This document shows, in pieces, positions 768 to 63,519 of a stretch of DNA of 64,000 nt. The stretch lies in IMG/VR virus record IMGVR_UViG_3300033149_003715, positions 1-64,000 of that record, one strand, 5' to 3'. The notes below the pieces were generated by a model. That model was not told the origin of the DNA. It saw only the letters and a list, made by a program, of their open reading frames with translations, and did no database searches. This DNA is from a virus. Numbering within the stretch: the first letter of the stretch is position 1; each line of letters begins with the position of its first letter. A program made the position numbers and the translations under genes.

Positions 768-768
768 T

Positions 769-784
769 TGGTGTATTATAATAC
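769..784 (+). promoter_or_regulatory. candidate promoter (AATTGGTGTATTATAATAC motif)
   Basis: The 49-bp gap before the 816 gene holds AATTGGTGTATTATAATAC. Its right part is the perfect palindrome GTATTATAATAC (773-784), which also occurs at 147-158. The motif matches the -10 area of the better-supported ssb promoter (AATTGTGGTATTATAGTAC on the minus strand near 57385). TATTAT is a good -10 box, but no convincing -35 box is visible here. Confidence 0.4.
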
Positions 785-815
785 GGCGGCTTTTATATAA
801 ATATGGATTTTTACT

Positions 816-1001: not shown

Positions 1002-1004
1002 TAT

Positions 1005-1942: not shown

Positions 1943-1955
1943 CTAGGAGATAATT

Positions 1956-3592: not shown

Positions 3593-3652
3593 TTTTTAAA
3601 ATTTTGTGCCATTTTTTATAAAAAATTAGTATAATAATATGGAGTACATAAA

Positions 3653-3829
3653 ATGCAAAATCAACCCCAAAATATGACAACTGTGTTAAAAACGGTTGCT
3701 TCTAGTGGTTTACAAAATGAAATTCTTACAGATTTAGAACAAGAAGATCCTGACGATAAGCGTGCTGAAATGATATTACAAGGAAAAATGGATAATATTA
3801 ATTATGAGACAAAAAAAACAGATTCCTAA
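3653..3829 (+). CDS. small hypothetical protein, 58 aa
   Basis: Short gene with GGAG eight bases before ATG 3653. It encodes an acidic, helical peptide (about 58 residues, LTDLEQEDPDDKRAEMI in the middle) and overlaps the start of the following sigma-factor gene by 26 bp in another frame. The good ribosome site and overlap suggest coupling to the sigma factor. It could be an anti-sigma or accessory peptide, but that is a guess. Confidence 0.55.
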   Translation: MQNQPQNMTTVLKTVASSGLQNEILTDLEQEDPDDKRAEMILQGKMDNINYETKKTDS

Positions 3830-46488: not shown

Positions 46489-46821
46489 CTATTCCATTTG
46501 TTGTGTATTTTTATTCCATTTTACCCAACCACGATTATTAAGCCAATTACCTTGATTGTCTTTTCGCTTGGGAAAAATACTACCACCCACCTTGTGAACA
46601 CCAAATTGTAATTTTGCTTGACATGTGATACATTGTAATTCGTAATATTTATTGCCGTCAACTGTTCTGACTACGTACTTTAAATTTTCTGATTGACATT
46701 TACCACATTTTGTTTCTCCAAATACTTCTTGGAAATTGTGTAATTTTTCAAAAACATCAACAATCTTTGTAGCTTCTAATTCTACATTCATTTTGGGATT
46801 TACTTGATAATGTACTTTCAT
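46489..46821 (-). CDS. zinc-ribbon protein of recombination module
   Basis: 110-aa protein with C39xxC42 and C64xxC67 in a zinc ribbon; residues 75-103 have SIFPKRKDNQGNW and GWVKW. Start chosen at ATG 46821; the longer frame starts inside the neighbour. Directly downstream of the Rad52-like gene with the two reading frames almost adjoining, so it is likely a recombination or ssDNA-binding partner. No named family. Confidence 0.6.
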   Translation of the reverse strand: MKVHYQVNPKMNVELEATKIVDVFEKLHNFQEVFGETKCGKCQSENLKYVVRTVDGNKYYELQCITCQAKLQFGVHKVGGSIFPKRKDNQGNWLNNRGWVKWNKNTQQME

Positions 46822-46823
46822 AA

Positions 46824-47666
46824 TTATTCCTTTACTATTGACTGCCAATTATCTTGGTAACCTTTAATTTCTTCAATAATTTGATCTGGATTTTGCCGAT
46901 ACTCGTGTAATTTGCCATTAATAGTTATGGCTTCTTGATGGGTTAATTGTGTAATATGGGTAATAGAACGATTCAAAATATGTTCCACGGTTTTTTGTAC
47001 GTTTAAATTTAATTTGTCCGGCCTGCATAACGAATCTATAAACTGTATTTGAAAGGCTGTAATTTCATTTTGAGTTGGTGAATCGTATATATCGACTTTT
47101 TTCTGTGAATATTCCTCTGCCGCTATAATCTTTCTTAATTTTAATGCACGTTTATATGCTCTGCCTTCTGCTCTTGTTTCTGCAACTGCAATTGGAAAGT
47201 GTTCGTATTTATCCGTATTACCATAGTATGAATCTGCACAACCACTAAATTGCCTTCTGTCATTCTCATCGAACTCAATGGTAATATTATGCTGTACGGT
47301 AGCACGATATTTATTTTCTGGTGTTGGTGTTTGTACAATTATACTATTTGACTCAACAATTGGTCCAAGTAGTTTTTCAGTTAGCCTACGTAAACCATCT
47401 GTTGTAGGATTGTCATTAATTTTTTCATCTGGTTCTAAAAGATTTAATACATAATCATTCCATTCTGGATCTATAATATCAGGTATAATTTGATTATTTG
47501 TATTATTGTCATTAGATGAATCTTGCATATTTTTACTTTCTGCTTCTTTTAATAATTGTACCCATGCTGTTTTACCTTTAATGTTATATCGACTTAGATC
47601 ATAATTATACTTACTATGTAAGATTTCTTTAATTTCTTTCACTTTCATTTTTTGATATTCATACAT
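46824..47666 (-). CDS. Rad52-like single-strand annealing protein
   Basis: 280-aa candidate recombinase. N-terminal 40 residues resemble a SAP/LEM-type DNA-binding helix pair (MKVKEIKEILHSKYNYDLS). The core (about 110-195) has TVQHNITIEFDENDRRQFSG and AVAETRAEGRAYKRALKLRKI, matching the Rad52/22-type pattern where the A-E-T-R-A-x-G-R-A helix is typical. Start at ATG 47666, six bases after GAGG; the frame extends to TTG 47678. It would anneal complementary strands during replication. Confidence 0.6.
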   Translation of the reverse strand: MYEYQKMKVKEIKEILHSKYNYDLSRYNIKGKTAWVQLLKEAESKNMQDSSNDNNTNNQIIPDIIDPEWNDYVLNLLEPDEKINDNPTTDGLRRLTEKLLGPIVESNSIIVQTPTPENKYRATVQHNITIEFDENDRRQFSGCADSYYGNTDKYEHFPIAVAETRAEGRAYKRALKLRKIIAAEEYSQKKVDIYDSPTQNEITAFQIQFIDSLCRPDKLNLNVQKTVEHILNRSITHITQLTHQEAITINGKLHEYRQNPDQIIEEIKGYQDNWQSIVKE

Positions 47667-47667
47667 A

Positions 47668-48450
47668 TCATACCTCAATTTCGATAGTACGGTTGGATTG
47701 TTTAGTTTTAATTTTGTTAATACAATCTAAGACTTTTTGTAATATCTGACGACATTTAGTTTTAGATGGAGATTTATCGTATTTAATCCTGATAATTGAA
47801 AATCCTTTATCGAATAATAATGCTGTTTTAATTTTATCTATATGTTGACTACGTTGAAATTCGTTCAACCCCCATATCGGTTTATGGTGAGATGGTCCAT
47901 CTACTTCAATTGCAATACCAAGTGTTGGTAATAATAAATCAATATGAATTTTATCATTAGCAACGATGTATTGTTTATGTTTTTCAACTACATATTTTAA
48001 TTTTTTAAGTTCGCTGAATAAAAATTTTTCCAGTTTTGATCCTTCTTTCGCGGCTTTTCTTATTGCGTCTTGAGCTATTTTTGTAAATTGTTGTCTACTT
48101 TTAATATCCCTGCTATTCCATCGTTGTTTAGCTGCTTCACTTAATTTAGTTAGTGTTTCTTTATCAATTTTTTGCCATGCTTTGGCCCTGCTTTCGCCTA
48201 TTTTGTATTTGGTTTGTTTATCGTGATGTTTACCTTTTGTTGGATGCAGTCGTCTACCAAGTTTAAGAGAAATTTTTTGAGCTTCCGATTGTGTTCTTGG
48301 CTTAAAACCTACTTTGTATGCTTTACGTCTTATATAATTAGCATATGTACCAAGTTCTTCTGCGATCATATTAAAGCTTTTACCTTTTTGGTTATACTCA
48401 CGCTCAAAAAAATCGTATGTTAACTTATTTTCTAATTCATGCTTTTTCAT
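47668..48450 (-). CDS. NUMOD3/Vsr-like homing endonuclease
   Basis: 260-aa protein with an HTH-like start (ENKLTYDFFEREYNQKGKSF), a NUMOD3-like DNA-binding stretch (GKHHDKQTKYKIGESRAKAW, about 73-92) and a C-terminal nuclease of the Vsr/DUF559 type: HIDLLLPTLGIAIEVDGPSH (about 169-188; D then E-V-D) followed by GFSIIRIKYD. This layout resembles EDxHD-type homing endonucleases in phages. It overlaps its neighbours by 14 and 3 bp. Free-standing, possibly an invader of the recombination operon. Confidence 0.65.
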   Translation of the reverse strand: MKKHELENKLTYDFFEREYNQKGKSFNMIAEELGTYANYIRRKAYKVGFKPRTQSEAQKISLKLGRRLHPTKGKHHDKQTKYKIGESRAKAWQKIDKETLTKLSEAAKQRWNSRDIKSRQQFTKIAQDAIRKAAKEGSKLEKFLFSELKKLKYVVEKHKQYIVANDKIHIDLLLPTLGIAIEVDGPSHHKPIWGLNEFQRSQHIDKIKTALLFDKGFSIIRIKYDKSPSKTKCRQILQKVLDCINKIKTKQSNRTIEIEV

Positions 48451-48919
48451 AATTAAATATTAATTCGATAATTTGAGTATAGTTGAAGTTTGGAATAATT
48501 GCTATTGGTTTTTTCCAGCATTTAGTTAAAACATCAGCATGTAATTTACTTCGTGCAATTAAATGTATACTATCATTATTGTATATTTTATTTAGATGCT
48601 TAAAGATTAATTGTTTCATATTTAACCATTCTAAATCCATAACATAAAAAAACTTTTGTTCAGTACCAATACATTTCATCATATATTGTGTGGTTTCTAT
48701 GTTTGTAGATATAAGGGGACCATTAAATCTCCAAGCTTCTACCAAAGGCATCATGGCAAACAACGGTGTAAGAACATGTTGGTAATAATCACTATAAAAT
48801 ACAATTGGATCATAATATCCAATATTTTTATCCTCCACTAAATTATTCATATTTTTAGTGATAAGTAAACCTTGTTGTGAAATATCTAACGCATAAGTTA
48901 ATATGCCAAATTTATTCAT
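48437..48919 (-). CDS. glycan-cluster hypothetical protein, 160 aa
   Basis: Unrecognised alpha/beta protein. Pattern GPLISTNIETTQYMM and IHLIARSKLHADVLTKCWKKPIAIIPNF resembles half of a GT-B glycosyltransferase, but it is short and lacks the usual E-x7-E motif. It is the last gene of the glycosyltransferase run before the nuclease. Confidence 0.5.
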   Translation of the reverse strand: MNKFGILTYALDISQQGLLITKNMNNLVEDKNIGYYDPIVFYSDYYQHVLTPLFAMMPLVEAWRFNGPLISTNIETTQYMMKCIGTEQKFFYVMDLEWLNMKQLIFKHLNKIYNNDSIHLIARSKLHADVLTKCWKKPIAIIPNFNYTQIIELIFNYEKA

Positions 48920-48928
48920 GCTAAATTC

Positions 48929-49789
48929 CTATGATATTTCTAGTTGTTGAAGAATGGCATCAACTTGATGACAATATGTATTATCTTGTATATTTTTATT
49001 GGCTGTTCTGGTCCATAATTGTCGTTCATCGTTATTATATAGATAAAATCGAATATGATCTATTAATGCTTTATAGTATTTGTTGTACGCTTCGTTATCA
49101 TTTAATAATGCATCCATACCAATAAATGGGTAGTAACCATTATTACGATTAGATATTGCAAAACCATTATTATATGCTACATCATACAACGAATTATTAT
49201 CAAAATCCAGTGTAATTTGGGCCGATGTAAAAAAATTGGCCGTTTCTTCTAAAGATGTTTGTCCTAAATATTCTACAAATGGTATTGTATATGGTCCAAT
49301 AATTTTTATTTGTAAATTTGTACCATTAGCTATATTTGTTAGTGTTTGTAGAATAAAGTCGTTTGGTGCAATATTTGATACATATAATAATTGTGTAGCT
49401 AATTTTGGATCATAAATACCGCTGTGATATTGTTTGCTATTGGCGGCATTGTGTAATGTAAGATATTTTCGTAAAGAGTCTATGATTGGTTGTTCAGTAT
49501 TTAATCCACATATAAGGTCTGGATTAAGTTCATCAATCAATGTTGCGGGAATAGGGCATGAGTCACATAAAACCAGTTTATATTGTTGCCTATATTCTTG
49601 AAGTGCTTTTTTAACAATGGAATCAATTGACGACGTATGACAAATAACAATATCAGGATTCATTTCTATCATCATATCATACGCGGGTTTAATTTGTGTA
49701 TTCCATATAATAGTTTGGTGCAATGCAGTAAAACTAGCAGCAATGCCGTTAAGAATCAAATTATTAGTATTTGTGATAACAACTTTCAT
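48929..49789 (-). CDS. GT-B-like glycosyltransferase
   Basis: 286-aa protein with two Rossmann-like halves; sequence blocks IVICHTSSIDSIVKKA, NPDLICGLNTEQP, LQIKIIGPYTIPFVEYLGQTSLEE and then DVAYNNGFAISNRNN are the CgeB-type pattern seen in GT-B enzymes. It would transfer sugar from a nucleotide sugar; substrate unknown. 139 bp-scale gaps are absent in this cluster, indicating one operon. Confidence 0.5.
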   Translation of the reverse strand: MKVVITNTNNLILNGIAASFTALHQTIIWNTQIKPAYDMMIEMNPDIVICHTSSIDSIVKKALQEYRQQYKLVLCDSCPIPATLIDELNPDLICGLNTEQPIIDSLRKYLTLHNAANSKQYHSGIYDPKLATQLLYVSNIAPNDFILQTLTNIANGTNLQIKIIGPYTIPFVEYLGQTSLEETANFFTSAQITLDFDNNSLYDVAYNNGFAISNRNNGYYPFIGMDALLNDNEAYNKYYKALIDHIRFYLYNNDERQLWTRTANKNIQDNTYCHQVDAILQQLEIS

Positions 49790-49796
49790 TTGTGAT

Positions 49797-50531
49797 TTAA
49801 TTTCTACATCTAAGAATTTTTCTTGCTATAAACATATCTTTCATACAATCTACATCATTTACTTTCATTTTTGGTGGACTTATCGCATAAATTTTACTAC
49901 CATGTTCAATCATTTTATTAAGTGCTTCGAACGTATATGTATTTTCGTTTGTTTTATCCCAACAGATTTCTTTAAACAAAGACAATTCATCACCAGTAAG
50001 ATATAATATTTGTGCCCACTTATTAGGTAAATCATAAATCATATGTTGCAATTTATCATCTACAATTGTACATCCTACTTCGTTGTTTGTCATGTAACCA
50101 GATTTATCAATAAGGATATAAGATTTACTTCTTCGCGGAAAATTCAAAGCATGTATATTAAAAACTAAATCGCCATAAATGATGATTACACGATTAGATG
50201 TTGCCGCTCTTAAACCTATACCTAAACTTCTAACTACATTTGTTGTTTCATATCTTTCATTTTCTACTTGTATAATATTATTTGGCATTAAATTCATAAT
50301 TTGTTCAGATTTGTAGCCAGTTACCAAAACGATTTCATAATTTCCATTTAAGGCTTTATGTATGGTATTTAATTGATGTGTAATAATATTTATATTTGGT
50401 GTAATTTGCAATAATGATTTCGGTCCGTAAGATTGAATTCTCCAACCTATACCAGCAGCGGGAATAATAACACTACATTTAATTGATTTACTGGGTTGAT
50501 TTTGTTTTATGGTATGGATATATTTAGGCAT
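49797..50531 (-). CDS. sugar/choline-phosphate nucleotidyltransferase-like
   Basis: 244-aa NTP-transferase fold enzyme. It has the loop CSVIIPAAGIGWRIQSYGPKSL near residues 19-40 (LxxxGxGxR..PK variant), IIIYGDLVF (about 117-125) for metal binding, and the typical split sheet. It would activate a sugar-1-phosphate or phosphocholine with CTP, UTP or dTTP. The family is clear, the substrate is not. It supplies activated sugars to the neighbouring transferases. Confidence 0.7.
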   Translation of the reverse strand: MPKYIHTIKQNQPSKSIKCSVIIPAAGIGWRIQSYGPKSLLQITPNINIITHQLNTIHKALNGNYEIVLVTGYKSEQIMNLMPNNIIQVENERYETTNVVRSLGIGLRAATSNRVIIIYGDLVFNIHALNFPRRSKSYILIDKSGYMTNNEVGCTIVDDKLQHMIYDLPNKWAQILYLTGDELSLFKEICWDKTNENTYTFEALNKMIEHGSKIYAISPPKMKVNDVDCMKDMFIARKILRCRN

Positions 50532-50533
50532 AT

Positions 50534-51094
50534 TTAATTGTCAATATACTGTTGAAAAAATGATAAATCATGAGCAATATTTTCTTTAGTGGTATGTTGT
50601 GTAGTAAATAATAATTCGGGAATATGAAACATTACTGTTGATCTACACAATCTATATAACATATCCATAAAATATAGATACCGCAATTGTTCATTAAATA
50701 ACTCAAATTTATTCAACTTAAAAAATAATGGACAATTTATTCTGTATTTACGAATTTTGTCATAGTGGTATGATGGATATAATAATATATTTTTACCATG
50801 TTCATCAATATAATATTGATCTGAATATATTCCGTTAATTTCTGGATATTCTTTGAACATATCAACGATATGTGTAATACTGTCTTTAGCAGCAAAATTA
50901 TTATATGGTGATAAAAATCCATAGATAACATCTTTGTCCTTTTGGAAATTCTCTTTAATTGTTTCATTAAATGCTACCGGAGGATTTTTCTTATTATTTA
51001 TAAAATTTACAAACGGATAATCTTGTTTAATTAGTGATTGTGTGCCAGCAACAGTAACAATCACTTCCGGATTTATGTTAGTAGATTCGGACAT
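50534..51094 (-). CDS. GT2-like glycosyltransferase fragment
   Basis: 186-aa protein with INGIYSDQYYIDEHGK (about residues 80-95), the DxD-like metal box of family-2 transferases, and helical ends. It lacks the usual N-terminal Rossmann half, so it may be a minimal or split GT-A protein. It overlaps the following gene by 22 bp, and the two may act as one enzyme. Confidence 0.5.
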   Translation of the reverse strand: MSESTNINPEVIVTVAGTQSLIKQDYPFVNFINNKKNPPVAFNETIKENFQKDKDVIYGFLSPYNNFAAKDSITHIVDMFKEYPEINGIYSDQYYIDEHGKNILLYPSYHYDKIRKYRINCPLFFKLNKFELFNEQLRYLYFMDMLYRLCRSTVMFHIPELLFTTQHTTKENIAHDLSFFQQYIDN

Positions 51095-51828
51095 AAGTTT
51101 TCTATACTTTCTATATCTATTTGATCCTTTTCTATTTTATCTATAAGTGGTTCTTGTGCGTGTCCATTATACATTTTATGTACCAAATAATGTACTATAT
51201 AACCATTACCATCTTGGTTTGGTTTTAAGATAGTTAATTGGTATAATTTTTTATATACTAAGTCATTTAATGTAGAAAAAAAGAATTTATCAATTCTGCA
51301 TCCAGCATTAAACACTGCATAATACATATGATGTATAATATCCACAACAAAATCAATTAAATTACCAAAAGTAGTTTGTGAATTAATAGTATTTTGCAAT
51401 CTCCATTTAATTTTTAATGGCTTAAGTAATTCGAGTAGTACAGTGTTAGATATTAAGCTATTAAATGGTTTGATAATTGTAATATGTTGTGTTGGTAGTG
51501 TTTGTTGCAATACATCATTTAAAGTGTTTTTTATTTGATCTAAGTTGTTATTAGCAATAATGATGGCTTGATAGTTTAGGCGATTTTCTTTATTTAATAC
51601 TGCTTTTTGTTCTTCTAATGTTCGATTGTATGCGTGCCATATTTTTGTGCGAAAATTATGACATATACGACCCTGAATTACATAAAATTCTTTATCTTCA
51701 TCATATGCTTCTAACACTGTTGTTTTAATGTTACGAAATTGTTCTAGTGTATTTAGAATACATCCAATTTGCGTATGTTGTTTGTATTGTGCAAAAATAC
51801 ATTCCTTGCATGGAGTATCCAATTTCAT
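51073..51828 (-). CDS. GT-A-like protein with N-terminal Cys motif
   Basis: 251-aa protein: an N-terminal CKECIFAQYKQHTQIGC Cys motif (C7, C10, C23), then YQAIIIANNNLDQIKNTLNDV (about 85-105) typical of family-2 glycosyltransferase starts. With the next gene downstream, whose fragment has the DxD box, it may form the complete GT-A fold split in two genes. I have seen the Cys motif in other large phage sugar genes but cannot name it. Confidence 0.5.
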   Translation of the reverse strand: MKLDTPCKECIFAQYKQHTQIGCILNTLEQFRNIKTTVLEAYDEDKEFYVIQGRICHNFRTKIWHAYNRTLEEQKAVLNKENRLNYQAIIIANNNLDQIKNTLNDVLQQTLPTQHITIIKPFNSLISNTVLLELLKPLKIKWRLQNTINSQTTFGNLIDFVVDIIHHMYYAVFNAGCRIDKFFFSTLNDLVYKKLYQLTILKPNQDGNGYIVHYLVHKMYNGHAQEPLIDKIEKDQIDIESIENLCPNLLT

Positions 51829-52289
51829 TTTGAATCCTTTGGGAGTGGTTTTTTGGCTATAATAGTATAACTTAAATGAAATAATTTTGAGAATATAATA
51901 GCTAATCCATAAGTTTTAAGTAATTTTTTCATTTCTAGTAAACTACTAACTGATTGTTTGCCATTATATAAATAGTATTGAATTTTAGTTATATCTTTAG
52001 AGGATTGATGTATTATACTATTTAAATCGTTGCCATCTATAATTAATTCTCCATTGGGTTTTAGTTTTTGTACGATAGATTGTAAAATTTGTTCTCTGTT
52101 CGATATATAATCTAAACGATCTCCTAAATAAATGAATTCGCAAGTGTTATTTGGTATCATATATTTAATACTATATATGTTAATTGGAATACATTCGTCA
52201 TACACTGACGATGATTGGGTTGCCGGAAAAATCGGAATATATTCGTTATATGGTGTTAGTATCCCGGGTACAGTTATTCTTATTTTCAT
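51825..52289 (-). CDS. truncated methyltransferase-like protein, copy 1
   Basis: 154-aa protein with CEFIYLGDRLDYISNREQILQ and LKPNGELIIDGNDLN, which match the middle of class I SAM methyltransferases (an acidic strand, then LxPGGxL). No Gly-rich SAM motif I precedes it. Paralogue of the next gene upstream, which overlaps it by 44 bp. Confidence 0.55.
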   Translation of the reverse strand: MKIRITVPGILTPYNEYIPIFPATQSSSVYDECIPINIYSIKYMIPNNTCEFIYLGDRLDYISNREQILQSIVQKLKPNGELIIDGNDLNSIIHQSSKDITKIQYYLYNGKQSVSSLLEMKKLLKTYGLAIIFSKLFHLSYTIIAKKPLPKDSK

Positions 52290-52710
52290 AATTTGGAAAT
52301 GGCCTTTTAGCTGTAATAGTATAACTCCAATTTACTAATTTTGATAGCACAATAGTTAATCCGTACATTCTAAGTAATTCTTTCATTGTTGGTAAATTAC
52401 TAATAGACTGTCTTCCGTTATATAAATATTGTTGAATATTATCTACATTTAAATGAAGACCACCATGTAATCTATATACTATATCAGTTAAGTCATTTCC
52501 TTCCACAATAAGTTTTCCATCATATTTTAATTTTTGTACTATTAATTCCAAGTAATGTTGTCTATTTGGAACATAATCTAAACAATCTTCTAAGTAAATA
52601 AAATCACATATGCTATCAGGCACCATATGTTTTACATCTTGTATGTTGATTGGTATACATTCATTATATAGCCGCGTTTGCCTATTAGGTAAAATAATTT
52701 TAATCTTCAT
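52246..52710 (-). CDS. truncated methyltransferase-like protein, copy 2
   Basis: 154-aa paralogue of the gene at 51825, sharing the same start (MKIKI), CDFIYLEDCLDYVPNRQ and LKYDGKLIVEGNDL, and YLYNGRQSISNL. Its C-terminal tail runs over the start of copy 1. Both may bind SAM weakly or serve as non-catalytic partners. Confidence 0.55.
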   Translation of the reverse strand: MKIKIILPNRQTRLYNECIPINIQDVKHMVPDSICDFIYLEDCLDYVPNRQHYLELIVQKLKYDGKLIVEGNDLTDIVYRLHGGLHLNVDNIQQYLYNGRQSISNLPTMKELLRMYGLTIVLSKLVNWSYTITAKRPFPNYENKNNCTRDTNTI

Positions 52711-53705
52711 TAATTTTTCCTTATATATACAGTTTGTGCAATGTCTTCAAAATAGTTGTCCCATTGTTGACAAAAAGTTTCTAAATTAGACAATTGACTT
52801 AATGCTAATTTTTGATATTTTACACTCAAAGCATCCAATGTATTTGTTCTATATTGTATAACTTTATTAATAATTTTTGCCAAATCATCTAAAGTTTTAA
52901 AGGTCATAATTTCTTTTTGATTTATAAAATTATTTGTGGCTGAAATGGGAATACATCCGGCGGCCATACCTAAATATAATGTAAGCGGATAACATTCTTC
53001 TTTGCCAATGTTGATTACAAATCGTGATTCACTCAATATTTTTATTGCTTGATCGTATGACATTGTATTAGAAATATCTTTATTATCCCCAATGATTAGA
53101 ATAGGTATCTTAATTGTGTTAATAATTTTATATAACTTGGCATATTCAGATTGTGAAAATTGCCCAATAATAATAGCTTGTGTTTTCTTGTTCGACAATT
53201 TATCTGTTATATCTATATTTGGAATACCATATTTAATAACATGATAATTTTTATTCCAGGATTTGTTAATTATATCATTTACTACAACTGTAAAATCCGG
53301 TTGTTGTTGTTTTTCTATAAGAAATATATCTTCTAACTTCATAATACTCATAGGCGATGTATGTTCAATTATTAGCAATGGCAAATGTAATACATCTGAC
53401 AACTGCTGTGCATATGAATATTGTTCAAGTCTATCATTACACACAATTAGGTCAAAATCTATACTAATTGGTAATGTTTTGTATTCTTGTAAAGGATGAA
53501 AATTTGAGCCGGGATTATATAGTGTAGTGTCCCATTTAATGTATGAGTGTTGAATACAACCATAAAATTTGTGCGTACTACCTTGAAATAATAAATGTTC
53601 AAACAGTCCGTTATATGGAAACCATAATATGTTAAGAGGTTTTGTTTTATATATAGCAGATTTTATAACGTGATTTGTAGGAAATGTCACAAATAATCCT
53701 TTCAC
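52710..53705 (-). CDS. GT-B glycosyltransferase, 331 aa
   Basis: Glycosyltransferase with an N-terminal WFPYNGLFEHLLF region and a C-terminal block IIGDNKDISNTMSYDQAIKI, SRFVINIGKEECYPLTLYLGMAAGCIPISATNN (about 225-262), the E-x-(PLTL) sugar-nucleotide site with gly/cys turn typical for GT-B. It overlaps its upstream neighbour by 4 bp. Confidence 0.65.
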   Translation of the reverse strand: MKGLFVTFPTNHVIKSAIYKTKPLNILWFPYNGLFEHLLFQGSTHKFYGCIQHSYIKWDTTLYNPGSNFHPLQEYKTLPISIDFDLIVCNDRLEQYSYAQQLSDVLHLPLLIIEHTSPMSIMKLEDIFLIEKQQQPDFTVVVNDIINKSWNKNYHVIKYGIPNIDITDKLSNKKTQAIIIGQFSQSEYAKLYKIINTIKIPILIIGDNKDISNTMSYDQAIKILSESRFVINIGKEECYPLTLYLGMAAGCIPISATNNFINQKEIMTFKTLDDLAKIINKVIQYRTNTLDALSVKYQKLALSQLSNLETFCQQWDNYFEDIAQTVYIRKN

Positions 53706-54829
53706 TTAATCAGTTGTCCAATTTGTTGTCCAACATTAGTATAACTTAATTTTTGAACTGCATCACGTCCGACTTGTTGTTTATGTACCTTTTCTAAACC
53801 AGTTAATTCATATGCTTGTCTCATTGCTTTTTGAAGTGCTAATATATCAATTTCTGACCACAGTTCCCATCCAGTATATAATTGAGGTAATGGTTTGTGT
53901 TCAGTATAAACTGGAATACGATGACTTGGTACAACATATCCTTCTACATTAGAGATAAAAGATGTCATACCTGTATTATCTGTAACAATAGGAGTATTAC
54001 CAAAACCCATAGCATCTATTGCAGGACGACAAAATGCCTCTCCATATGATGGCATAACAAAACAATCACATATTTGGTGTAATGCATACAATTCTTCATA
54101 TGTAAGATGTTCTGTGATAAGTAATTCAGAATGATAATATTCTATGTTATGATATAAACCTAACTGTTTTTTAAATTGTAAAATGTCTTTTTGTACTTGT
54201 TGCGTTAAATCATCTGGCGAAACACCACCTAGATTTGTTTTAATAATTAAATTAACTGGTTCTGATCTACTAAATTCTCTATGAAATGCTGTCAAAAGTG
54301 CTTTAATATTTTTACGGGCAATGTATTCACCAATAAAGTAAAAATTAAACTTGTTTTCTAATTCATAGTTCTTCCACGGTGTAATGTCGTATTCCTTATT
54401 AAATTTGGTAACATCTATTGGTTCACTAATATTATGTATAGGAATATTTACACCACTTTCTTTTAAATTTTGTTTTTCTTGTGTACTTGGTACCCATAAT
54501 TCATCCACTTGATTAATGTAGTATGGCCAATTTGTATTTTTTAAGTTTGCGGTTTCAAATGTACACAAACAAATCGTTTTATGAAAATCATTAGAAAACT
54601 CTAATAAATGTGGTAATACTTTTTGTATGACAACATCGTACTCAGTGTTTATTTTCTGTTCTAATCTTTTTAATTTTTCTGGAATATGTGGTCGTACACT
54701 ATTTGTCATCCATATTGGTCGCAAAGTAATATCACAATTTGTATGAGTTAAAGCTAATGCATAGTCGTATGCAGCTTCACCCCAACCTGTATAACTTCGG
54801 TATGGTGCTACAAATAAAACTTTTTTCAT
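53702..54829 (-). CDS. family-4-like glycosyltransferase, 375 aa
   Basis: Start MKKVLFVAPYRSYTGWGEAAYDYALAL is the retaining GT-B start, and GEAFCRPAIDAMGFGNTPIVTDNTGM (about 269-294) is the E-x7-E nucleotide-sugar motif. Length matches GT4 enzymes. It likely adds a sugar to a glycan or protein; donor unknown. Confidence 0.8.
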   Translation of the reverse strand: MKKVLFVAPYRSYTGWGEAAYDYALALTHTNCDITLRPIWMTNSVRPHIPEKLKRLEQKINTEYDVVIQKVLPHLLEFSNDFHKTICLCTFETANLKNTNWPYYINQVDELWVPSTQEKQNLKESGVNIPIHNISEPIDVTKFNKEYDITPWKNYELENKFNFYFIGEYIARKNIKALLTAFHREFSRSEPVNLIIKTNLGGVSPDDLTQQVQKDILQFKKQLGLYHNIEYYHSELLITEHLTYEELYALHQICDCFVMPSYGEAFCRPAIDAMGFGNTPIVTDNTGMTSFISNVEGYVVPSHRIPVYTEHKPLPQLYTGWELWSEIDILALQKAMRQAYELTGLEKVHKQQVGRDAVQKLSYTNVGQQIGQLIK

Positions 54830-56505
54830 TGATTAACTTTTTCTTTTAAATGGGCATATTGAATAAAATCTTCATTTGGTAACGTAGTTAAACCACACCT
54901 AATTTGTTCACATTTATTATGTATTGTGGCTTTTAGAGCAAAATTTTTAAATATATCTTCTCGCGTAATTTTTTCTAGTTTATTATTGTGTTTTACCGCC
55001 CCATGATTCAAATCACGTAAAATTTCCATTGCGAATCTACTATTAACTTGGTTTGGACGATTCCAAATATTAGTAATTATCCATGTAATAAATTGTTTGT
55101 TATTAAGTTTTTGTGTGTATTCTGGTAATGATGGTGGTATTTTAATAAATCGTGGTGGATGATTCCATTTACCCTGTAAATCTTTTAAGACTACATTATC
55201 AAAATAATCTTCCCAAATTTTTGCGGTGTTATCCCAATTATAATATTTTTCGACTGCTCGTCGTGCTTTTTGTTGATATAATATTTTTTTGTCTTCTGGT
55301 AAATTGAGATATTGATAAATAAAATTTGCACAATATTCGTTATCTGGTAATGCTCTATATGAATGACTTTCTAACTCACGAAACATTCTCTGAATTTTAA
55401 GTGGAAAACCATCAGTATATTTAATAATATCTGTTGTAGCACTATAATCTACTGAAGCTAATGGAACACCACATGCTGCTGCTTCTGTTAAACCAAGTCC
55501 AAATCCTTCACAAATTGCATATTGAATATATAAATCAAATAATTTATAAATATCTGTAAGTTCTTTTCTTGATATACCTTCATGCGGCGATGGTAGTACA
55601 GCAGCAACAGAATTACAGTGTGGACAAACAGTGCGACCATCTTGAAAAAATGATGAAAACGGTTTTTTACATGCTCTACATTTATAAGTAAAAATAACTT
55701 TGTGACCAATACATTCTTCTGCTAATAATTTTGGGATATCCCATCCTGCTCCTTCTGGATATGTAGTATGACAATATAAAAATGTTTTGTGTGCCAAGTC
55801 TGTTTGATTGTTTGCATAACATTTTTCTAAAAATAACCGAAAAGATCGAAATAAGTCTGCAAATAATTTGCGTTTTTGATTACGCATTACTGTACCAATA
55901 ATAAAAGAATCTGGATCAATGCCCTTATCAATTTTATACTGTCTTTTGTCTTTTGGTGGACAAGATTGAACCAAATCTACCCCCGGTCGTGCAGCACTAT
56001 ATAGATTAATTTTTCCATGTCCTTCTTTTGCCAATTCTTTCATATTCCAATCTGTATATGTAAATATACTGTCTACTCCCATATACGTTTCTATCCATTC
56101 ATCTTTTTGTGGCATACTGTCTGCTGTAACCATCCAAACCCAATGAAAAAACGGTCTTAATGGAGAATCTGTAATATATGCATCCATCCAATAATCTCTA
56201 ATACCAAAAACAATATCGGGCTTAAAATCTAATAATACTTTTTCAAAACGCCACATTCCAAATTCATTTATTTGTTGTGATTTGTATTGTTTATATCTTG
56301 GATCTGTTTTTTGTACAGTATTTGCATAAAATCTCCATTTAATATCTCTGTCGCGTGGATCATTAATTGCTCCATAACTAGCAAATTCTGCCAAATGATA
56401 TTTATTGGTATTATATAAGCGTGACAAAATTTCTTTTGCATATGTGCCAAATCCACTAGCTAAATATGATGCTTCACCAACGAATAATATTTTTTTCTTG
56501 GTCAT
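54826..56505 (-). CDS. GT4-like glycosyltransferase with zinc-ribbon insert
   Basis: 559-aa enzyme. N-terminal SGFGTYAKEILSRL (about 16-30) and CEGFGLGLTEAAACGVPLAS (332-351) give the GT-B signature. Between them a zinc ribbon, C276xxC279 and C294xxC297 (CRACKKPFSSFFQDGR then CPHC), interrupts the second Rossmann domain, an unusual insertion. Residues about 440-559 are a helical tail. Starts the glycan run right after the sigma gene (stop and start adjoin). Confidence 0.75.
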   Translation of the reverse strand: MTKKKILFVGEASYLASGFGTYAKEILSRLYNTNKYHLAEFASYGAINDPRDRDIKWRFYANTVQKTDPRYKQYKSQQINEFGMWRFEKVLLDFKPDIVFGIRDYWMDAYITDSPLRPFFHWVWMVTADSMPQKDEWIETYMGVDSIFTYTDWNMKELAKEGHGKINLYSAARPGVDLVQSCPPKDKRQYKIDKGIDPDSFIIGTVMRNQKRKLFADLFRSFRLFLEKCYANNQTDLAHKTFLYCHTTYPEGAGWDIPKLLAEECIGHKVIFTYKCRACKKPFSSFFQDGRTVCPHCNSVAAVLPSPHEGISRKELTDIYKLFDLYIQYAICEGFGLGLTEAAACGVPLASVDYSATTDIIKYTDGFPLKIQRMFRELESHSYRALPDNEYCANFIYQYLNLPEDKKILYQQKARRAVEKYYNWDNTAKIWEDYFDNVVLKDLQGKWNHPPRFIKIPPSLPEYTQKLNNKQFITWIITNIWNRPNQVNSRFAMEILRDLNHGAVKHNNKLEKITREDIFKNFALKATIHNKCEQIRCGLTTLPNEDFIQYAHLKEKVNQ

Positions 56506-57408: not shown

Positions 57409-60156
57409 TCATATCTGGTATAATGCATTTACAATAAAACTATCGTTTTTTCCAGGACCACCAATCATCATAACATGATTATTTTCTACAACCAAAGATT
57501 TAACTTTAATCCAAACATCCGGGAAAATAACTGCATTTACACTACCAGATATATCAGAAACATTCATAAATGCCATAGGTTGCCCTGGATTTTTGCCTGA
57601 TTTAGTTTTAATTTCTACTACCTTATCTATTACAACAGGTAAAAAAATTGGCTTTTTATATAAGCCTTTAAGAAAATTATCGCAAGTACAATTTGCTTGA
57701 GAAATATCGCAAGATTCAACAGATGAATGTGTAAGTGGTACTCCAAGATAAAATTCTTCTTGTGCTGATACCCATGCCGGATTATCTTTAAGTAATCTTT
57801 TGGGGTTTTGTAGCATGTCTATCAAACTACGCACTTTTTCTTTACGATTAGTGTTAACACACCCACCCTTTTGACCTATTGGACTATTATATAATTCTTT
57901 CAATAGCTGTAATAAGTTAATACCATTATTAAAATTTTTATAAAATATTTGGCACCATTTTTTTTCATGGTTACTTAGTTGATTGTATTGATCATATTCA
58001 TATAACATTTTAGTACGTGGTTGTGGTTGGTTTAAATGATCTAATGCACCTGAACATATAAGTGCTTTTAATGTTGTTGAGTTAATTTGACTACTTGTAT
58101 ATACCAAAAAGTCCATCCAATTCCATGATATAATATTTTTTTGTATTGTTTTTTCTGTGTGATAAATAATTTTGCTTAATTTTTCAATCATTGACTGTCC
58201 GATACCTTTGATATCGGAAAGACCAAATCTAATTATTTGATCAATAAGTTTAAACTTTGTGTTTTGATGAATAATGTTTGGCGGATTTACTTGAATATCC
58301 ATAGACCGTGCATTTAAAATTAACTTCTTTATCTCTTGTAATGTATCTTGTTTCCCTTGTGCGTAATGTAAATATGATGTAAAAAAAGCACGAGGAAAAT
58401 GAGCTTTACAATAGGCAGAAAGATAACAATTTAATGCATAACTGACAGAATGACTTTTGTTAAATTGATAACGTTGAGATGCTTGTATCCACTCAAAAAT
58501 TTGTTCTGCTTCTTTTTTATTTACTATACCCTTTTTAACACATCCATCAATAAACGGTTTTTTAATTTTGGATATTTCTTCCGGTTTTTTCTTACCAATA
58601 CTATTATGTACCAAGATACCATTAATAAATCCGTAATTGTATTCTCCCTTTACGGTAAAATCAAATGTTTGTTTTTCACCAAGTTTTGTAATTCTTCTTA
58701 TTTTTGTAAATTGATACTGTGTGTCTGTAGATGATGTTGTTATATCGGATAAATCGGATTCAATTTGACGTACTTTATCCAGTTTATCGGGGGGAATGTA
58801 CTGACTATATTTTTCAAGAAAACGTCGTATATTTGTTGGATCTGAAATAGTGATATAATATGTTTGATATGATTCATATGGCCTATCATCGTATCTATTA
58901 TTTCTTATTACGAGATTAGAGTATATATCATCTCTTAATAATAAAATTTGTAGTTGTTGTGCTATTTTGTAAGATGTAGTGGTAACCGATATTTTTTTCT
59001 TTTTAACATTCATATTACCTTTGCTTGCAAAACACGCTCCAACAAACGCTGTAGTAATATCATTTGCAGCATATAGAATATGTGACGGAATATATCTTTC
59101 CTTGACCTTACATGGTGTATAAATTGTTGAGAACCATTGAAATGCTTTATTTTGAAAGTGTATATCTTTGCGTCTACTGTTAGGTTGGGAAACTGTATAA
59201 CTATTTGAACCAAATTCTTTCTGTGAAATACTTAATATCTTTTCTGTAATCCAAGGATCATAACTTCTAATTTTCAAAAATACATCCTTGGTATAATACC
59301 CTATAAAAATAAAATAGGATAATATAATAGATTTGTTAATATTAATCTGGTGTGGTTTTAAACATCCCTCATATTGATACCGATTTGAAATAGTAACATA
59401 ATCTTTTCTGGTTAATTCTACAACTTTTTTCCAGCCTTGTTTGGTATATACTTGGTGTTTGTCTGTTAATTCGATATGATGTCCGCTGTCTGTGGTTATC
59501 CGATATACAATTTGTTTGCCCGTAGGCCACACTTTTTCTATATCATAATACTTCAATTGTCCACTTTCATTCGTGGATAATATTTTATAATTACACTGCC
59601 CTTTTGACATTTGCAATGCAATTTGCTCTATATACCTTGGGCCACTTTGTGTTAAAACAATAGAACCTTCGGCTACACATTTTCGTAGGATATCGGATTC
59701 TGCTAATGTAAATCCCGCAATTTCTTGTGCAATACGCAAATGTGATTCTTGAAATATAGAAAGACCATAAGTATCTTTTAGAATTGGTTCTAATGCGGGA
59801 TGAAAATATGTTATTTCTTCTTTTCCGTTTTTTCTGTCTATATATCTTTGTGTAATACTCTTTCCATCTATTAAACTTTCGCTGGGACCGGGCCTCATTA
59901 TTGCAATTAACGCTGATAGGTGTTCTATATTTCGCGGTTGTAATTTTTTTACTAATAATTGCCCTAGTGATGATTCCAATTGAAAACAACCTACTACATT
60001 ACCATCGCATAATAAATCCCATGTGCGTTGACATTCTAGTGGTATTTTTTCAATGTCAGGATTAAATTCTAGCAAAGGTTTTTTCCCAAATTTGGTTTCT
60101 TGATAACCTATAATTGGAAATTGACACCCACAGTTATATTTAAATACTTTATTCAT
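57409..60156 (-). CDS. dnaE: DNA polymerase III alpha, C-terminal part with intein
   Basis: 915-aa polypeptide completing the polymerase whose N-terminal half is at 61645. Before the intein: NPDIEKIPL, DGNVVGCFQLESSLG (about 51-65), RPGPSESL, YFHPALEPILKDTYGLSIFQE. After it: SIGKKKPEEISKIKKPFIDGC, RYQFNKSHSVSYALNCYLSAYCKAHFP (fingers), GLSDIKGIG (helix-hairpin-helix) and an OB-fold near the end. All three catalytic Asp are in the other half. Excision of the intein would leave 556 residues. The Cys-rich N-terminus YNCGCQFPI is not part of cellular DnaE. Confidence 0.85.
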   Translation of the reverse strand: MNKVFKYNCGCQFPIIGYQETKFGKKPLLEFNPDIEKIPLECQRTWDLLCDGNVVGCFQLESSLGQLLVKKLQPRNIEHLSALIAIMRPGPSESLIDGKSITQRYIDRKNGKEEITYFHPALEPILKDTYGLSIFQESHLRIAQEIAGFTLAESDILRKCVAEGSIVLTQSGPRYIEQIALQMSKGQCNYKILSTNESGQLKYYDIEKVWPTGKQIVYRITTDSGHHIELTDKHQVYTKQGWKKVVELTRKDYVTISNRYQYEGCLKPHQININKSIILSYFIFIGYYTKDVFLKIRSYDPWITEKILSISQKEFGSNSYTVSQPNSRRKDIHFQNKAFQWFSTIYTPCKVKERYIPSHILYAANDITTAFVGACFASKGNMNVKKKKISVTTTSYKIAQQLQILLLRDDIYSNLVIRNNRYDDRPYESYQTYYITISDPTNIRRFLEKYSQYIPPDKLDKVRQIESDLSDITTSSTDTQYQFTKIRRITKLGEKQTFDFTVKGEYNYGFINGILVHNSIGKKKPEEISKIKKPFIDGCVKKGIVNKKEAEQIFEWIQASQRYQFNKSHSVSYALNCYLSAYCKAHFPRAFFTSYLHYAQGKQDTLQEIKKLILNARSMDIQVNPPNIIHQNTKFKLIDQIIRFGLSDIKGIGQSMIEKLSKIIYHTEKTIQKNIISWNWMDFLVYTSSQINSTTLKALICSGALDHLNQPQPRTKMLYEYDQYNQLSNHEKKWCQIFYKNFNNGINLLQLLKELYNSPIGQKGGCVNTNRKEKVRSLIDMLQNPKRLLKDNPAWVSAQEEFYLGVPLTHSSVESCDISQANCTCDNFLKGLYKKPIFLPVVIDKVVEIKTKSGKNPGQPMAFMNVSDISGSVNAVIFPDVWIKVKSLVVENNHVMMIGGPGKNDSFIVNALYQI
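58603..59679 (-). other. intein in polymerase III alpha C-part
   Basis: 359-aa intein, residues 160-518 of the host protein. Starts with Cys (CVAEGSIVLTQSG, block A), has block B-like TDKHQVYTKQGW and ends GFINGILVHN followed by Ser+1. All splice residues are present. Inside, two degenerate LAGLIDADG-like segments (LSYFIFIGYYTKD, FVGACFASKGNM) lack the catalytic acidic residues, so the homing nuclease is probably dead. It splits the conserved LLRR-A-x-GKKKPEE motif of DnaE. Confidence 0.92.
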
Positions 60157-60171
60157 TTATATATCTTATTT

Positions 60172-60441
60172 TTAGAAAATTTTTTCACACACATCACATT
60201 TATTAAAAGAATCGTTCCCGCCAGACGGATCACCAAAAAAACTAAAAACAGGATGATCACATTGATTTTGAATCTGTTCTTTGTCTGCTTTTAATTTTTT
60301 AAGTTCATTATCATAAAATACTTTAACACTTTCAATTTGTCTATTTATCTCATTAATGCGGGATTTTAAGTTACGATAATGTTTAACCTTATCACATAAT
60401 TTATTATCTTTTATAATGTGTTTTAATAGTTTGTCTAACAT
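60172..60441 (-). CDS. coiled-coil zinc-binding small protein
   Basis: 89-aa protein: a coiled coil (about residues 20-55, INRQIESVKVFYDNELKKLKADKEQ) and a terminal metal motif (C61, H63, then C82xxC85). It overlaps the exonuclease gene by 7 bp. Placed between polymerase halves; could be a bridging subunit, which is only an inference. Confidence 0.55.
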   Translation of the reverse strand: MLDKLLKHIIKDNKLCDKVKHYRNLKSRINEINRQIESVKVFYDNELKKLKADKEQIQNQCDHPVFSFFGDPSGGNDSFNKCDVCEKIF

Positions 60442-61130
60442 TTTTCTTTCCTAAATGAATTTTTAAATTGAGTATTTTTTGCTACTCTTCTTTGAAATTT
60501 CAGAAATCTACATAGTAATTCAGCCGTTTGTTTTACATCTGTTAATGCATCATGTGCTTTGTCTTTGCTCATACCAAAATAATTTCTCAAGGTATCAAAC
60601 TGATAATTGGTTGGTTCATTGAAATTTTCGAACCAAGAAAATATCATTGGCATTAAATCAATACGATCTCGTGGATGAAATATATTTGGCTTATTGTATT
60701 TATCTATATTACCATATTGTTTGCAAAGTCTATCAAGAATAATACAATCAAAATTTAATATATTATACCCGCATAATACTGGTGCCGAAAATTGGTTTTT
60801 ACGTTTTGTTCGTGAATGATACCTTAATAAATAATTGCAAAAATCAGCCCATACATCTTTTTGTAGTGGGGCATTTTTCCATATTGATATAATTTCTTCT
60901 GAACTAGTATTATAATTTTTGGCGTGCCACTGGATTGTTTCTGAATGTTGTTCGATATAATTTGACTTGTTTATATTTGGTGGTTGAATGAAACTATTAA
61001 ATTCTGAATCAGAAATAATGTTTAAGGTACGTGGATGTACCATGATAGATGCTAATTGCACAGGATTAGCAGTATAAGCATCACTACTATCAGTTTCAAA
61101 ATCTAGTATTATAAAAGTGTTAGTATTCAT
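60435..61130 (-). CDS. DnaQ-like 3'-5' exonuclease
   Basis: 231-aa DEDDh exonuclease: IILDFETDS (D9, E11), CGYNILNFDCIILDRL (second Asp) and KAHDALTDVKQT (H...D). Family function is proofreading; its location between the two polymerase parts supports use as the epsilon subunit of the phage polymerase. The start shares ATGA with the 45-aa gene upstream. Confidence 0.85.
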   Translation of the reverse strand: MNTNTFIILDFETDSSDAYTANPVQLASIMVHPRTLNIISDSEFNSFIQPPNINKSNYIEQHSETIQWHAKNYNTSSEEIISIWKNAPLQKDVWADFCNYLLRYHSRTKRKNQFSAPVLCGYNILNFDCIILDRLCKQYGNIDKYNKPNIFHPRDRIDLMPMIFSWFENFNEPTNYQFDTLRNYFGMSKDKAHDALTDVKQTAELLCRFLKFQRRVAKNTQFKNSFRKEKC

Positions 61131-61264
61131 CGAATATTCTCAGGATCTTCAAAATAATCTATTTTATCTTGTAATTGTTGATTATTATACTCTTCATTGT
61201 TTGATGGTGTTGGATAATCTAATTGTTCTAAAATATCAGCCACATCTTCGTATTCACTATACAT
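61127..61264 (-). CDS. 45-aa acidic protein
   Basis: Unlisted small gene: AAGGAA about seven bases before ATG 61264, 45 acidic residues (MYSEYEDVADILEQLDYPTP start, PENIR end) and a TGA overlapping the exonuclease ATG (ATGA). The ribosome site and tight coupling support translation. Might bind or regulate the exonuclease or polymerase. Confidence 0.6.
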   Translation of the reverse strand: MYSEYEDVADILEQLDYPTPSNNEEYNNQQLQDKIDYFEDPENIR

Positions 61265-61342
61265 TATGTTCCTTTCCACTTATTAAATCTAAACAGTATT
61301 GCGTAGGAAATAGTATGCTTTTTTCGGTTCTTTTCTAAATGA

Positions 61343-61645
61343 TTAGTTGTAAAGATATTCCATAACCTTTTGCATTGCATATCTTGCCTCATTCCATAAT
61401 TTTGCTAATGTTTGATCTTCTATTTTATAATGAGGAATTTCACTGTATATACTATCTCCTAATCCATTATAAGTTACATAATCGCGTATATCGTCATTTG
61501 TCATTTTATGGTTACGAGGAATTTCAGCAGGCAAAGAAATATTAGGTAGACCATTGTATTCTCGATCTTGCACCCAAAGTCCAGTTATAATTTGTTTGGG
61601 GGTTAATGATTTTTTATAATTTGTCTTTTTTCTTTTGCGACCCAT
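61343..61645 (-). CDS. hypothetical basic protein, 100 aa
   Basis: Starts with MGRKRKKTNYKKSLTPKQI, then IPHYKIEDQTLAKLWNEARYAM. Start overlaps the polymerase stop. Not recognised. The intergenic stretch 61265-61342 on its downstream side has no gene or clear signal. Confidence 0.5.
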   Translation of the reverse strand: MGRKRKKTNYKKSLTPKQIITGLWVQDREYNGLPNISLPAEIPRNHKMTNDDIRDYVTYNGLGDSIYSEIPHYKIEDQTLAKLWNEARYAMQKVMEYLYN

Positions 61646-63519
61646 TAATCTGATATATCACCTGTACGTAAAATTTGTTGAATACTTTGAATTTTATCTA
61701 GTAATTGTAAACCAAGTATATCTAACTTTACAACACCAACTTTTTCTAAATCAGCCATCTCAAACCCCAATATTTGTGTTTTGCTTTTTGGATCATATAC
61801 TAATGGTGCTATAACATTAAGTGGCACGCTTGCTATACCAATGCCGGCTGCATGTTTACTTTGATGTGTTTGTGTTCCTTCTAACCGTATAGCTTGAGCA
61901 AAATATTTTGATAATGGTCCAGTTAACTCATTATTTTCTATTCTACACCATTCCGAAAGATGTCCTTTTTCATCATTTAATAATGTATATTTAATTGATG
62001 ATGCTTCCCCTTCTTCTTTTCTCATTTCTTCTAATTCACCCATAATTTTGTGTTCTTGTGGAAACTTTTTTGTAAGTAGGTTCATTTCATCAAACGAAAC
62101 GACATTATGTGCTCTTAACACAGCTTTAATTGCTGATCGACCATGTAATTTTGCAATTGTTACCATTTGAGCAACACGATCTTGTCCATATGTATTACGA
62201 ATATATCTAATAACACGATCTCTACCATTTGTTTGTAAATCTATGTCTATGTCTGGAAGACTGGATTTATTTTCGTTAAAACGTCCTGGGTTTAAAAATC
62301 TTTCAAAATATAATTTCCATTTAATAGGATCAACATTTGTGATATTAATAAGATTACTTACCAATGAGCCGGCCGCACTTCCACGAGCACCACCAACTAG
62401 AAAATTTTGCTTGCGAGCATATGTGACTATATCTTGTACCATCAAAAAATATCCACACAGATTAAATTTCTCTATTACTTCTAGTTCATAGTTTAATCTA
62501 TCACGATATTTTTGTTGTTCTGATTGTGGAATTTTGTTTTCTATTTTTGTATTCCAACCCTGTTCACATAAATGTCTTAAATGTTGAGAGGTTGTAATAT
62601 TATTTGGACACCTGAAATCCGGCAACAGCGGCTGTTTTAATATATTTGTATATTGCCCACACTGACTATGTATGTCTAATGTATTTTCTAATTCTTCCTC
62701 TGTATTTCCGCATAACAACATTTCTTTGTAAGATGGTATATGAAATTGTGAGCTTTTGAAAAACGCACTAAATCCACCCTTATTTTTTACTTCTTTTATT
62801 GTGGATTGAAAGTTATTTGCTAATAAGACCAATTGATCTACTTGTTGAGCTTGTGTACAATAATGACTATCTGGAGTAGCTACAGTTTTTGTTTTTGTTA
62901 ATTTAGCTATTTCTCTTAAACATTCTGCTAATACTTTTGTTTCTGGTGTATTTTGACTATCTATTAATTGAATTTCAACATAAAAATTATTATGTAAGAT
63001 TTCTTTACAATATTCTACTAGTTTAATGCCATTTTTTTTCCAATTTGGTTTAACTTTGTTGTTTTCGTCTAAAATAACTGCTGACAATGTACTACCAAGA
63101 TGACCAGATATTCCTATCAGATGCTGAAAATTTTGTTTTGCTATTTCTTTGAGACTGAGGCGTGGTTTATAATAATATGTTTCTGGCCTATTGGATAAAT
63201 CAACAAATTTTAATAATTCTTGAAATCCCTTATCACCTTGAGCAAAGAAAAGAAAATGAGTAAGCTTACGATTATCACTATTTTGTATATGAGAATGTTG
63301 ATTACATATATATGCTTCTATTCCTAGAACAGGTTTTAAATTTTGCTCTATAAATTCATTATAAAATGATATTGCATTTAATATATTACCGTGATCTGAT
63401 AGTCCACATCCATCTAATTCTAGATTGATAATACGCTTACATATTTCTTTTGGTGACGAAATAGCATCAGATAAAGATCCCATACTATGAACATGAAGTG
63501 GTATATATTTATTTAACAT
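61645..63519 (-). CDS. dnaE: DNA polymerase III alpha, N-terminal part (PHP and palm)
   Basis: 624-aa half of a replicative polymerase. PHP domain: HVHSMGSLSD (9-18), SDHG (41-44), GIEAY (66-70), SGHLGS (138-143), PDSHY (216-220), with metal residues apparently intact. Palm: GGARGSAAGS (376-385), PDIDIDL (422-428, catalytic D423 and D425) and VVKLDILGL (597-605, D600 the third Asp). It ends 24 residues after D600, just where the C-terminal part of the family would begin; that is encoded at 57409. It cannot act alone without fingers. Confidence 0.88.
   Translation of the reverse strand: MLNKYIPLHVHSMGSLSDAISSPKEICKRIINLELDGCGLSDHGNILNAISFYNEFIEQNLKPVLGIEAYICNQHSHIQNSDNRKLTHFLFFAQGDKGFQELLKFVDLSNRPETYYYKPRLSLKEIAKQNFQHLIGISGHLGSTLSAVILDENNKVKPNWKKNGIKLVEYCKEILHNNFYVEIQLIDSQNTPETKVLAECLREIAKLTKTKTVATPDSHYCTQAQQVDQLVLLANNFQSTIKEVKNKGGFSAFFKSSQFHIPSYKEMLLCGNTEEELENTLDIHSQCGQYTNILKQPLLPDFRCPNNITTSQHLRHLCEQGWNTKIENKIPQSEQQKYRDRLNYELEVIEKFNLCGYFLMVQDIVTYARKQNFLVGGARGSAAGSLVSNLINITNVDPIKWKLYFERFLNPGRFNENKSSLPDIDIDLQTNGRDRVIRYIRNTYGQDRVAQMVTIAKLHGRSAIKAVLRAHNVVSFDEMNLLTKKFPQEHKIMGELEEMRKEEGEASSIKYTLLNDEKGHLSEWCRIENNELTGPLSKYFAQAIRLEGTQTHQSKHAAGIGIASVPLNVIAPLVYDPKSKTQILGFEMADLEKVGVVKLDILGLQLLDKIQSIQQILRTGDISD

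What the first reader, a model, noticed from the sequence alone, without database searches (positions are those of the whole stretch)
57409..63519. Replicative polymerase III alpha is split into two genes around three or four others
Seen: one frame has the PHP domain and all three palm Asp, and stops 24 residues past the third (D600); another, over 1.4 kb downstream, starts with the missing fingers-to-OB part. Between them lie a DnaQ-like exonuclease, a coiled-coil zinc protein, a 45-aa gene and a 100-aa gene. No split-intein halves are at the break, so the two proteins must join non-covalently. Whether small genes help bridging is inference. I believe split alpha subunits exist in some phages but this arrangement with the proofreader in the gap deserves study.
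Basis: partly seen in the sequence, partly recalled or inferred. Interest (0 to 1): 0.8.

Follow-up and report, generated by a model that had tools for sequence, protein, structure and literature searches.

The report
Phage replicase split across two genes
A large, so far uncultured group of phages makes its only detected DNA-copying enzyme (bacterial-type DNA polymerase III alpha) as two separate proteins, with a predicted proofreading exonuclease gene always lying between the two halves, so the break first seen in one genome is an old, conserved design and not an error.

Summary
The 624-aa protein (61645-63519, -) is PHP + palm + thumb; the 915-aa protein (57409-60156, -) is fingers to OB fold and carries a 359-aa intein. 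On Thermus alpha they cover residues 4-636 and 644 onward: a clean cut at the palm/fingers boundary.

It is not an artefact. Of IMG/VR relatives long enough to show both halves, 166 of 166 loci (119 distinct N-halves) have the same split, none is fused, and a DnaQ-like exonuclease lies in the gap in all 166. Catalytic residues are conserved and dN/dS is 0.01-0.06 in all three genes. In 16 large records (138-231 kb) it is the only family A, B or C polymerase detected. The C-half has a new N-terminal hairpin, CGCxF, plus an invariant Cys.

The window's small gap genes are not conserved, so they are unlikely bridges. No split intein or known intron is at the break; a non-covalent heterodimer is the best reading (inferred). 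Two relatives break the C-half again, there with a real split intein, giving alpha in three pieces.

Split alpha is known (cyanobacteria, some jumbo phages, phiT1), so this is a new variant; the conserved alphaN-exonuclease-alphaC operon appears undescribed.

The parts
61645..63519 (-). Alpha N-half (624 aa): PHP + palm + thumb, catalytic D423/D425/D600
61343..61645 (-). 100-aa ORF of unknown function, start overlapping the N-half stop (TAATG); no family match; one relative in L095, outside the gap
61127..61279 (-). 50-aa ORF from GTG (45 aa from the inner ATG), unknown function, not conserved
60435..61130 (-). DnaQ-like 3'-5' exonuclease (231 aa), DEDDh residues D10, E12, D128, H193, D198; present in the gap of all 166 related loci
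60172..60441 (-). 89-aa ORF with two Cys pairs and heptad-like make-up, start overlapping the exonuclease stop; no relatives found
57409..60156 (-). Alpha C-half (915 aa): fingers, HhH, OB, with an intein
60058..60156 (-). N-terminal extension of the C-half (residues 1-33) with the family's CGCxF hairpin
   Evidence: (model of relative L030)
58603..59679 (-). 359-aa LAGLIDADG intein (C-half residues 160-518), between DILRK and SIGKKK

Best explanation
These phages replicate with a C-family replicase whose alpha subunit is permanently two polypeptides. Alpha-N carries PHP, palm and thumb (all three catalytic Asp); alpha-C carries fingers, HhH and OB. The cut falls in the loop joining the helix after the third palm Asp to the first fingers motif. 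The two proteins are made from one operon with overlapping or near-adjacent genes, in the order alpha-N, small gene(s), DnaQ-like exonuclease, alpha-C, and are inferred to assemble non-covalently into one active enzyme with the exonuclease as proofreading partner, probably docked on alpha-N's PHP domain as epsilon is in E. coli. The new CGCxF hairpin of alpha-C probably shapes or stabilises the new N-terminus at the break. Shown: the split, its conservation, the operon order, intact active sites, purifying selection, and no other family A, B or C polymerase detected in the 16 large records searched. Inferred: non-covalent assembly, exonuclease partnership, role of the hairpin.
For: 166/166 loci with both halves are split, 0 fused, exonuclease in the gap in all (details). 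The searches used the N-half as query, so fused genes would have been fetched too. Clean complementarity on Taq alpha. PHP and palm catalytic residues and exonuclease DEDDh invariant or nearly so. dN/dS 0.011-0.064 for N-half, exonuclease and C-half across ten close pairs. Exonuclease stop overlaps the C-half start in 76 and lies within 20 bp in 19 of 104 distinct loci. Each half folds confidently alone in AF2. One palm gene per record in 15 large relatives; no PolA, PolB or beta clamp found in 16 records. No intein half at the break: N-half tails are about 10-20 aa after the LDK motif in nearly all; C-half heads carry only the CGCxF extension. No Rfam intron.
Against: No structure or model of the joined complex; no expression, biochemistry or proteomics. 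The CGCxF extension is missing in 6 of 105 loci, so it cannot be essential for joining, and its loss does not go with loss of any conserved N-half Cys, which argues against a metal site shared across the two proteins. Ligation at the RNA or protein level by an unknown mechanism is not formally excluded.
Confidence: 0.85

Rival explanations
1. The two halves are ligated after all, by protein trans-splicing or by trans- or cis-splicing of mRNA, giving one alpha chain.
For: Split inteins are real in this gene: two relatives (L225, L233) have one inside the C-half.
Against: No IntN or IntC sequence at the N/C break in the loci inspected; no Rfam intron in the window region; the genes in the gap are separate ORFs with overlapping stops and starts.
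Confidence: 0.06
2. Assembly error, frameshift or decaying pseudogene.
For: Fragmented alpha genes from sequencing errors do occur; among the loci fetched, L244 has an N-half broken into several frames.
Against: 166/166 independent loci with the same split and gap exonuclease; dN/dS 0.011-0.064; all catalytic residues intact.
Confidence: 0.01
3. The split pair is not the replicase but an accessory enzyme (repair or remnant), replication being done by another polymerase of phage or host.
For: Jumbo phages of group 2.2 carry a split minimal alpha beside a family B polymerase (PMC7824862). No beta clamp was found in these records, so a host factor would be needed if a clamp is used.
Against: No family A or B polymerase in 16 large records; the window's record carries DnaB-type helicase, Toprim primase, RecA, RuvB and SSB.
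Confidence: 0.08

Closest known systems
Rossellomorea phage phiT1 gp20/gp18 (PV767480)
   Same: Alpha in two genes, cut at the same palm/fingers boundary, a small gene (49-aa gp19) in the gap
   Different: About 31% identity in the N-half; no exonuclease in the gap; no CGCxF extension; one origin of the split with this family is neither shown nor rejected
Split minimal Pol III alpha of group 2.2 jumbo phages (PMC7824862)
   Same: Pol III alpha catalytic module as two standalone phage proteins thought to reconstitute an enzyme
   Different: Described as minimal, without the other Pol III domains, in distantly located genes, beside a family B polymerase. Here PHP and OB are present, in one operon, with no family B polymerase found
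Cyanobacterial split DnaE joined by a split intein (Caspi 2003, cited in PMC3919608)
   Same: Alpha encoded in two genes
   Different: There the halves are ligated by the split intein, at a site later in the fingers (site from my own knowledge); here no intein at the break
Bacterial Pol III core, alpha + epsilon (DnaE + DnaQ)
   Same: Same polymerase domains and the same exonuclease superfamily
   Different: Alpha is one chain and the epsilon gene does not lie inside it (general knowledge; E. coli dnaE locus)
Bacillus phage vB_BauM_KLEB27-3 alpha
   Same: Two annotated alpha genes
   Different: Broken inside the fingers with an HNH endonuclease gene between: looks like a homing-type fracture
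Fractured genes with split inteins and homing endonucleases (Dassa 2009, cited in PMC3653736; text not held)
   Same: The C-halves of L225 and L233 look like this arrangement
   Different: Not the N/C break itself

Membership tests
C-family DNA polymerase (Pol III alpha, DnaE type) | PHP + C-family palm with catalytic Asp triad + fingers + HhH + OB | tested here: met
   (spread over two chains; the window's OB match is weak)
C-family DNA polymerase (Pol III alpha, DnaE type) | single polypeptide (usual, not strictly defining) | tested here: not met
C-family DNA polymerase (Pol III alpha, DnaE type) | DNA polymerase activity | not testable with these tools
   needs biochemistry
Active PHP proofreader (HHDHEH[C/H]DH criterion, PMC12926913) | nine metal ligands | tested here: met
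   window has all nine; subclade L267-L272 has lost ligands
Split-intein DnaE (cyanobacterial type) | IntN and IntC at the break | tested here: not met
   a real split intein occurs only within the C-half of L225 and L233
Group 2.2 jumbo-phage split minimal alpha | minimal catalytic module, unlinked genes, with a family B polymerase | tested here: not met
   against PMC7824862; sequences not compared directly
Intron- or homing-endonuclease-interrupted gene | intron RNA or homing endonuclease gene at the break | tested here: not met
   no homing nuclease match among the gap ORFs of the window
DnaQ/epsilon-type proofreading exonuclease | DEDDh catalytic residues | tested here: met
DnaQ/epsilon-type proofreading exonuclease | physical partner of alpha | not testable with these tools
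   inferred from the constant gene position

The most novel reading that the evidence does not exclude
A widespread uncultured phage clade uses an obligate three-protein replicase core (alpha-N, DnaQ-like exonuclease, alpha-C) encoded as one co-translated unit, in which the exonuclease, made between the two halves, takes part in assembling the polymerase, and the CGCxF hairpin is a new metal-binding element at the palm/fingers junction.
Probability: 0.25. Interest if true: 0.8.

Novelty: new variant of a known kind. Interest (0 to 1): 0.62.

Why it matters
Replicative alpha is nearly always one chain; here is a whole lineage where palm and fingers are separate proteins under strong selection and appear to be the phage's only DNA polymerase. 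It offers a natural system to ask how a polymerase active site works across a protein-protein interface, how proofreader and polymerase assemble, and how genes split and stay split. It also matters for genome mining: searches that expect a full-length DnaE will miss or mis-call these polymerases. The relatives with alpha in three pieces, one junction with a split intein and one without, show two ways of living with a broken gene within one enzyme.

Tried and rejected
Single-protein scans of IMG/VR with the window's own halves found nothing; a profile of phage alphas was needed. Profile A2 was too variable to scan with. A scan with the phiT1 N-half found no relatives. Artefact, intron and trans-splicing readings were tested and rejected or made unlikely. 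Metal site shared between the halves: tested by co-loss of CGC and N-half Cys columns, not supported. Small gap proteins as conserved bridges: not supported; relatives instead mostly have a different ~60-aa gene with an FxDLxVGxxF-like start right after the N-half (78 of 105), unmatched in Pfam for the two tested. Whether phiT1's split shares the family's origin: unresolved (FastTree joins them; the careful tree puts phiT1 with unsplit PS1/BpsS36 at 87/95; the AU test does not reject sharing, p 0.68). A first IQ-TREE run reached its time limit without supports and is not used. Literature searches found no description of this operon, but only open-access text is held.

Full report
What is there. 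The window is bases 1-64000 of a 144,173-bp IMG/VR virus record. On the minus strand the order is: alpha N-half (61645-63519, 624 aa), a 100-aa ORF, a 45/50-aa ORF, an exonuclease (60435-61130, 231 aa), an 89-aa ORF, and the alpha C-half (57409-60156, 915 aa), followed by SSB and a small sigma-70 region 2 protein. The N-half stop and the next start overlap (TAATG), the 45/50-aa stop overlaps the exonuclease start (ATGA), the exonuclease stop overlaps the 89-aa start, and the C-half begins about 15 bp after the 89-aa stop: an operon of separate, probably translationally coupled genes.

The two halves are one alpha. The N-half has the PHP and the complete C-family palm profile, the C-half the finger domain, HhH and a weak OB match, interrupted by a 359-aa LAGLIDADG intein at residues 160-518. 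On Thermus alpha they match residues 4-636 and 644 onward; on E. coli alpha the C-half match starts at 580. From my knowledge of the E. coli structure this is the palm/fingers boundary. AF2 models of the window's N-half (pLDDT 92.5, pTM 0.90) and of a relative's intein-free C-half (L030; pLDDT 91.9, pTM 0.83) fold well on their own; the N-half ends just after the helix that follows the third palm Asp. The best PDB matches of both are Thermus, Mycobacterium and E. coli Pol III alpha.

It is conserved. With a profile of phage alphas, 80 IMG/VR loci at 42-49% identity were found; further scans reached deeper branches, some about 38% identical to the query used. Of all loci that show both halves, 166 of 166 are split, none is fused, and all 166 have the exonuclease in the gap (119 distinct N-halves by their last 200 residues). 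The scans asked only for the N-half, so fused genes could be fetched just as well, and the bacterial hits from the parallel genome scan were indeed nearly all fused. In the first 105 distinct loci the median gap is 868 bp (range 611-4501), and the exonuclease stop overlaps the C-half start in 76 and is within 20 bp in 19 of 104. Most relatives have a ~60-aa gene and the exonuclease only; others have a uracil-DNA glycosylase or larger inserts.

It is functional by sequence. The nine PHP ligands, the palm Asp residues and R379-G380-S381 are conserved in nearly all of the first 82 sequences aligned, and the exonuclease DEDDh residues in all or nearly all of 107. dN/dS of N-half, exonuclease and C-half in ten close pairs is 0.011-0.064 (one N-half comparison failed on an ambiguous base). 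Fifteen large relatives have exactly one palm gene each, and these plus the window's record have no family A or B polymerase and no beta clamp by Pfam, though the records may be incomplete. One deep branch (L267-L272) has a shortened PHP with lost ligands but keeps the exonuclease in the gap, which points to the exonuclease as the main proofreader there (inference).

What is new at the break. In the family, but not in phiT1, the C-half begins with about 30 extra residues carrying CGCxF (98 of 105 distinct loci), predicted as a beta hairpin, and the first fingers motif has a Cys (C42) conserved throughout where phiT1 has Asp. This looks like a zinc knuckle, but zinc is not shown; a fourth ligand is uncertain (C57 is Val or Ile in several members), six loci lack the extension altogether, and a test for co-loss with N-half cysteines was negative.

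How the halves join. No split-intein sequence is found on either side of the break in the loci inspected and no known intron in the window region. Two relatives, L225 and L233, show what a split intein in this gene looks like: their C-half is broken again at FNK|S, with intein halves and a nuclease-type gene between (LAGLIDADG in L233, DUF559/restriction-like in L225), so alpha is in three pieces; L234 has a cis intein at the same site. The plain N/C break is thus of another kind, and non-covalent assembly is the best reading, but it is inferred.

Origin. The family is one clade, separate from bacterial and other phage alphas (100/100). Only one family-type locus turned up among GTDB genome contigs, a 9.4-kb contig in a Flavobacteriales MAG (L100), and no phage in the INPHARED set comes closer than about 31%. 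phiT1 has the same cut, but whether it shares the event is open.

Known or new. Split alpha is known from cyanobacteria (split intein; PMC3919608) and, as a minimal form with unlinked genes beside a family B polymerase, from jumbo phages (PMC7824862); gene fracture in phages is common (RNR, PMC3653736). A PHP-bearing alpha split at the palm/fingers boundary, with a DnaQ-like exonuclease in the gap as a conserved operon and as the only polymerase detected, was not found in the searchable literature. I file it as a new variant of a known kind.

Noticed in passing
L225:13964-16847, L233:10727-13674, L234:12522-14627: The alpha C-half is itself fractured by a split intein at FNK|S (three residues after the cyanobacterial split-intein site, as I recall it), with a nuclease-type gene between the pieces; L234 has a cis intein at the same site.
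   Followed up: partly
L225:10722-13782 (similar inserts in L067 and L084): The gap between the alpha halves carries DUF1501 and DUF1559 (prepilin-like) genes in L225, types I associate with Planctomycetes, and a ThyX-like gene: a possible host clue.
   Followed up: no
L267-L270, L272: Deep subclade with a shortened PHP domain that has lost metal ligands while the split alpha and the gap exonuclease persist.
   Followed up: partly
L040:7707-10046, L095:11674-13560: Further inserts, probably inteins, in the C-half near residue 90, a different site from the window's intein.
   Followed up: no
L054:8908-9453 (similar in L096, L097): Uracil-DNA glycosylase gene directly after the alpha N-half.
   Followed up: no
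window record 74013-77327 (L002:10013-13327): Class II-like ribonucleotide reductase (1104 aa) that also has an intein-splicing match.
   Followed up: no
window record about 110-142 kb (L004-L006): Many paralogous small genes (KIYYKVV... and ...FYLTGSRFFGTHxENSDWDFF...), apparent expansions of two or more families.
   Followed up: no
window 46489-56505: Long minus-strand run of genes before the replication operon, some of which look like glycosyltransferases by eye.
   Followed up: no
L018:5914-10284 (Bacillus phage KLEB27-3): Alpha broken inside the fingers with an HNH endonuclease gene between the pieces.
   Followed up: partly
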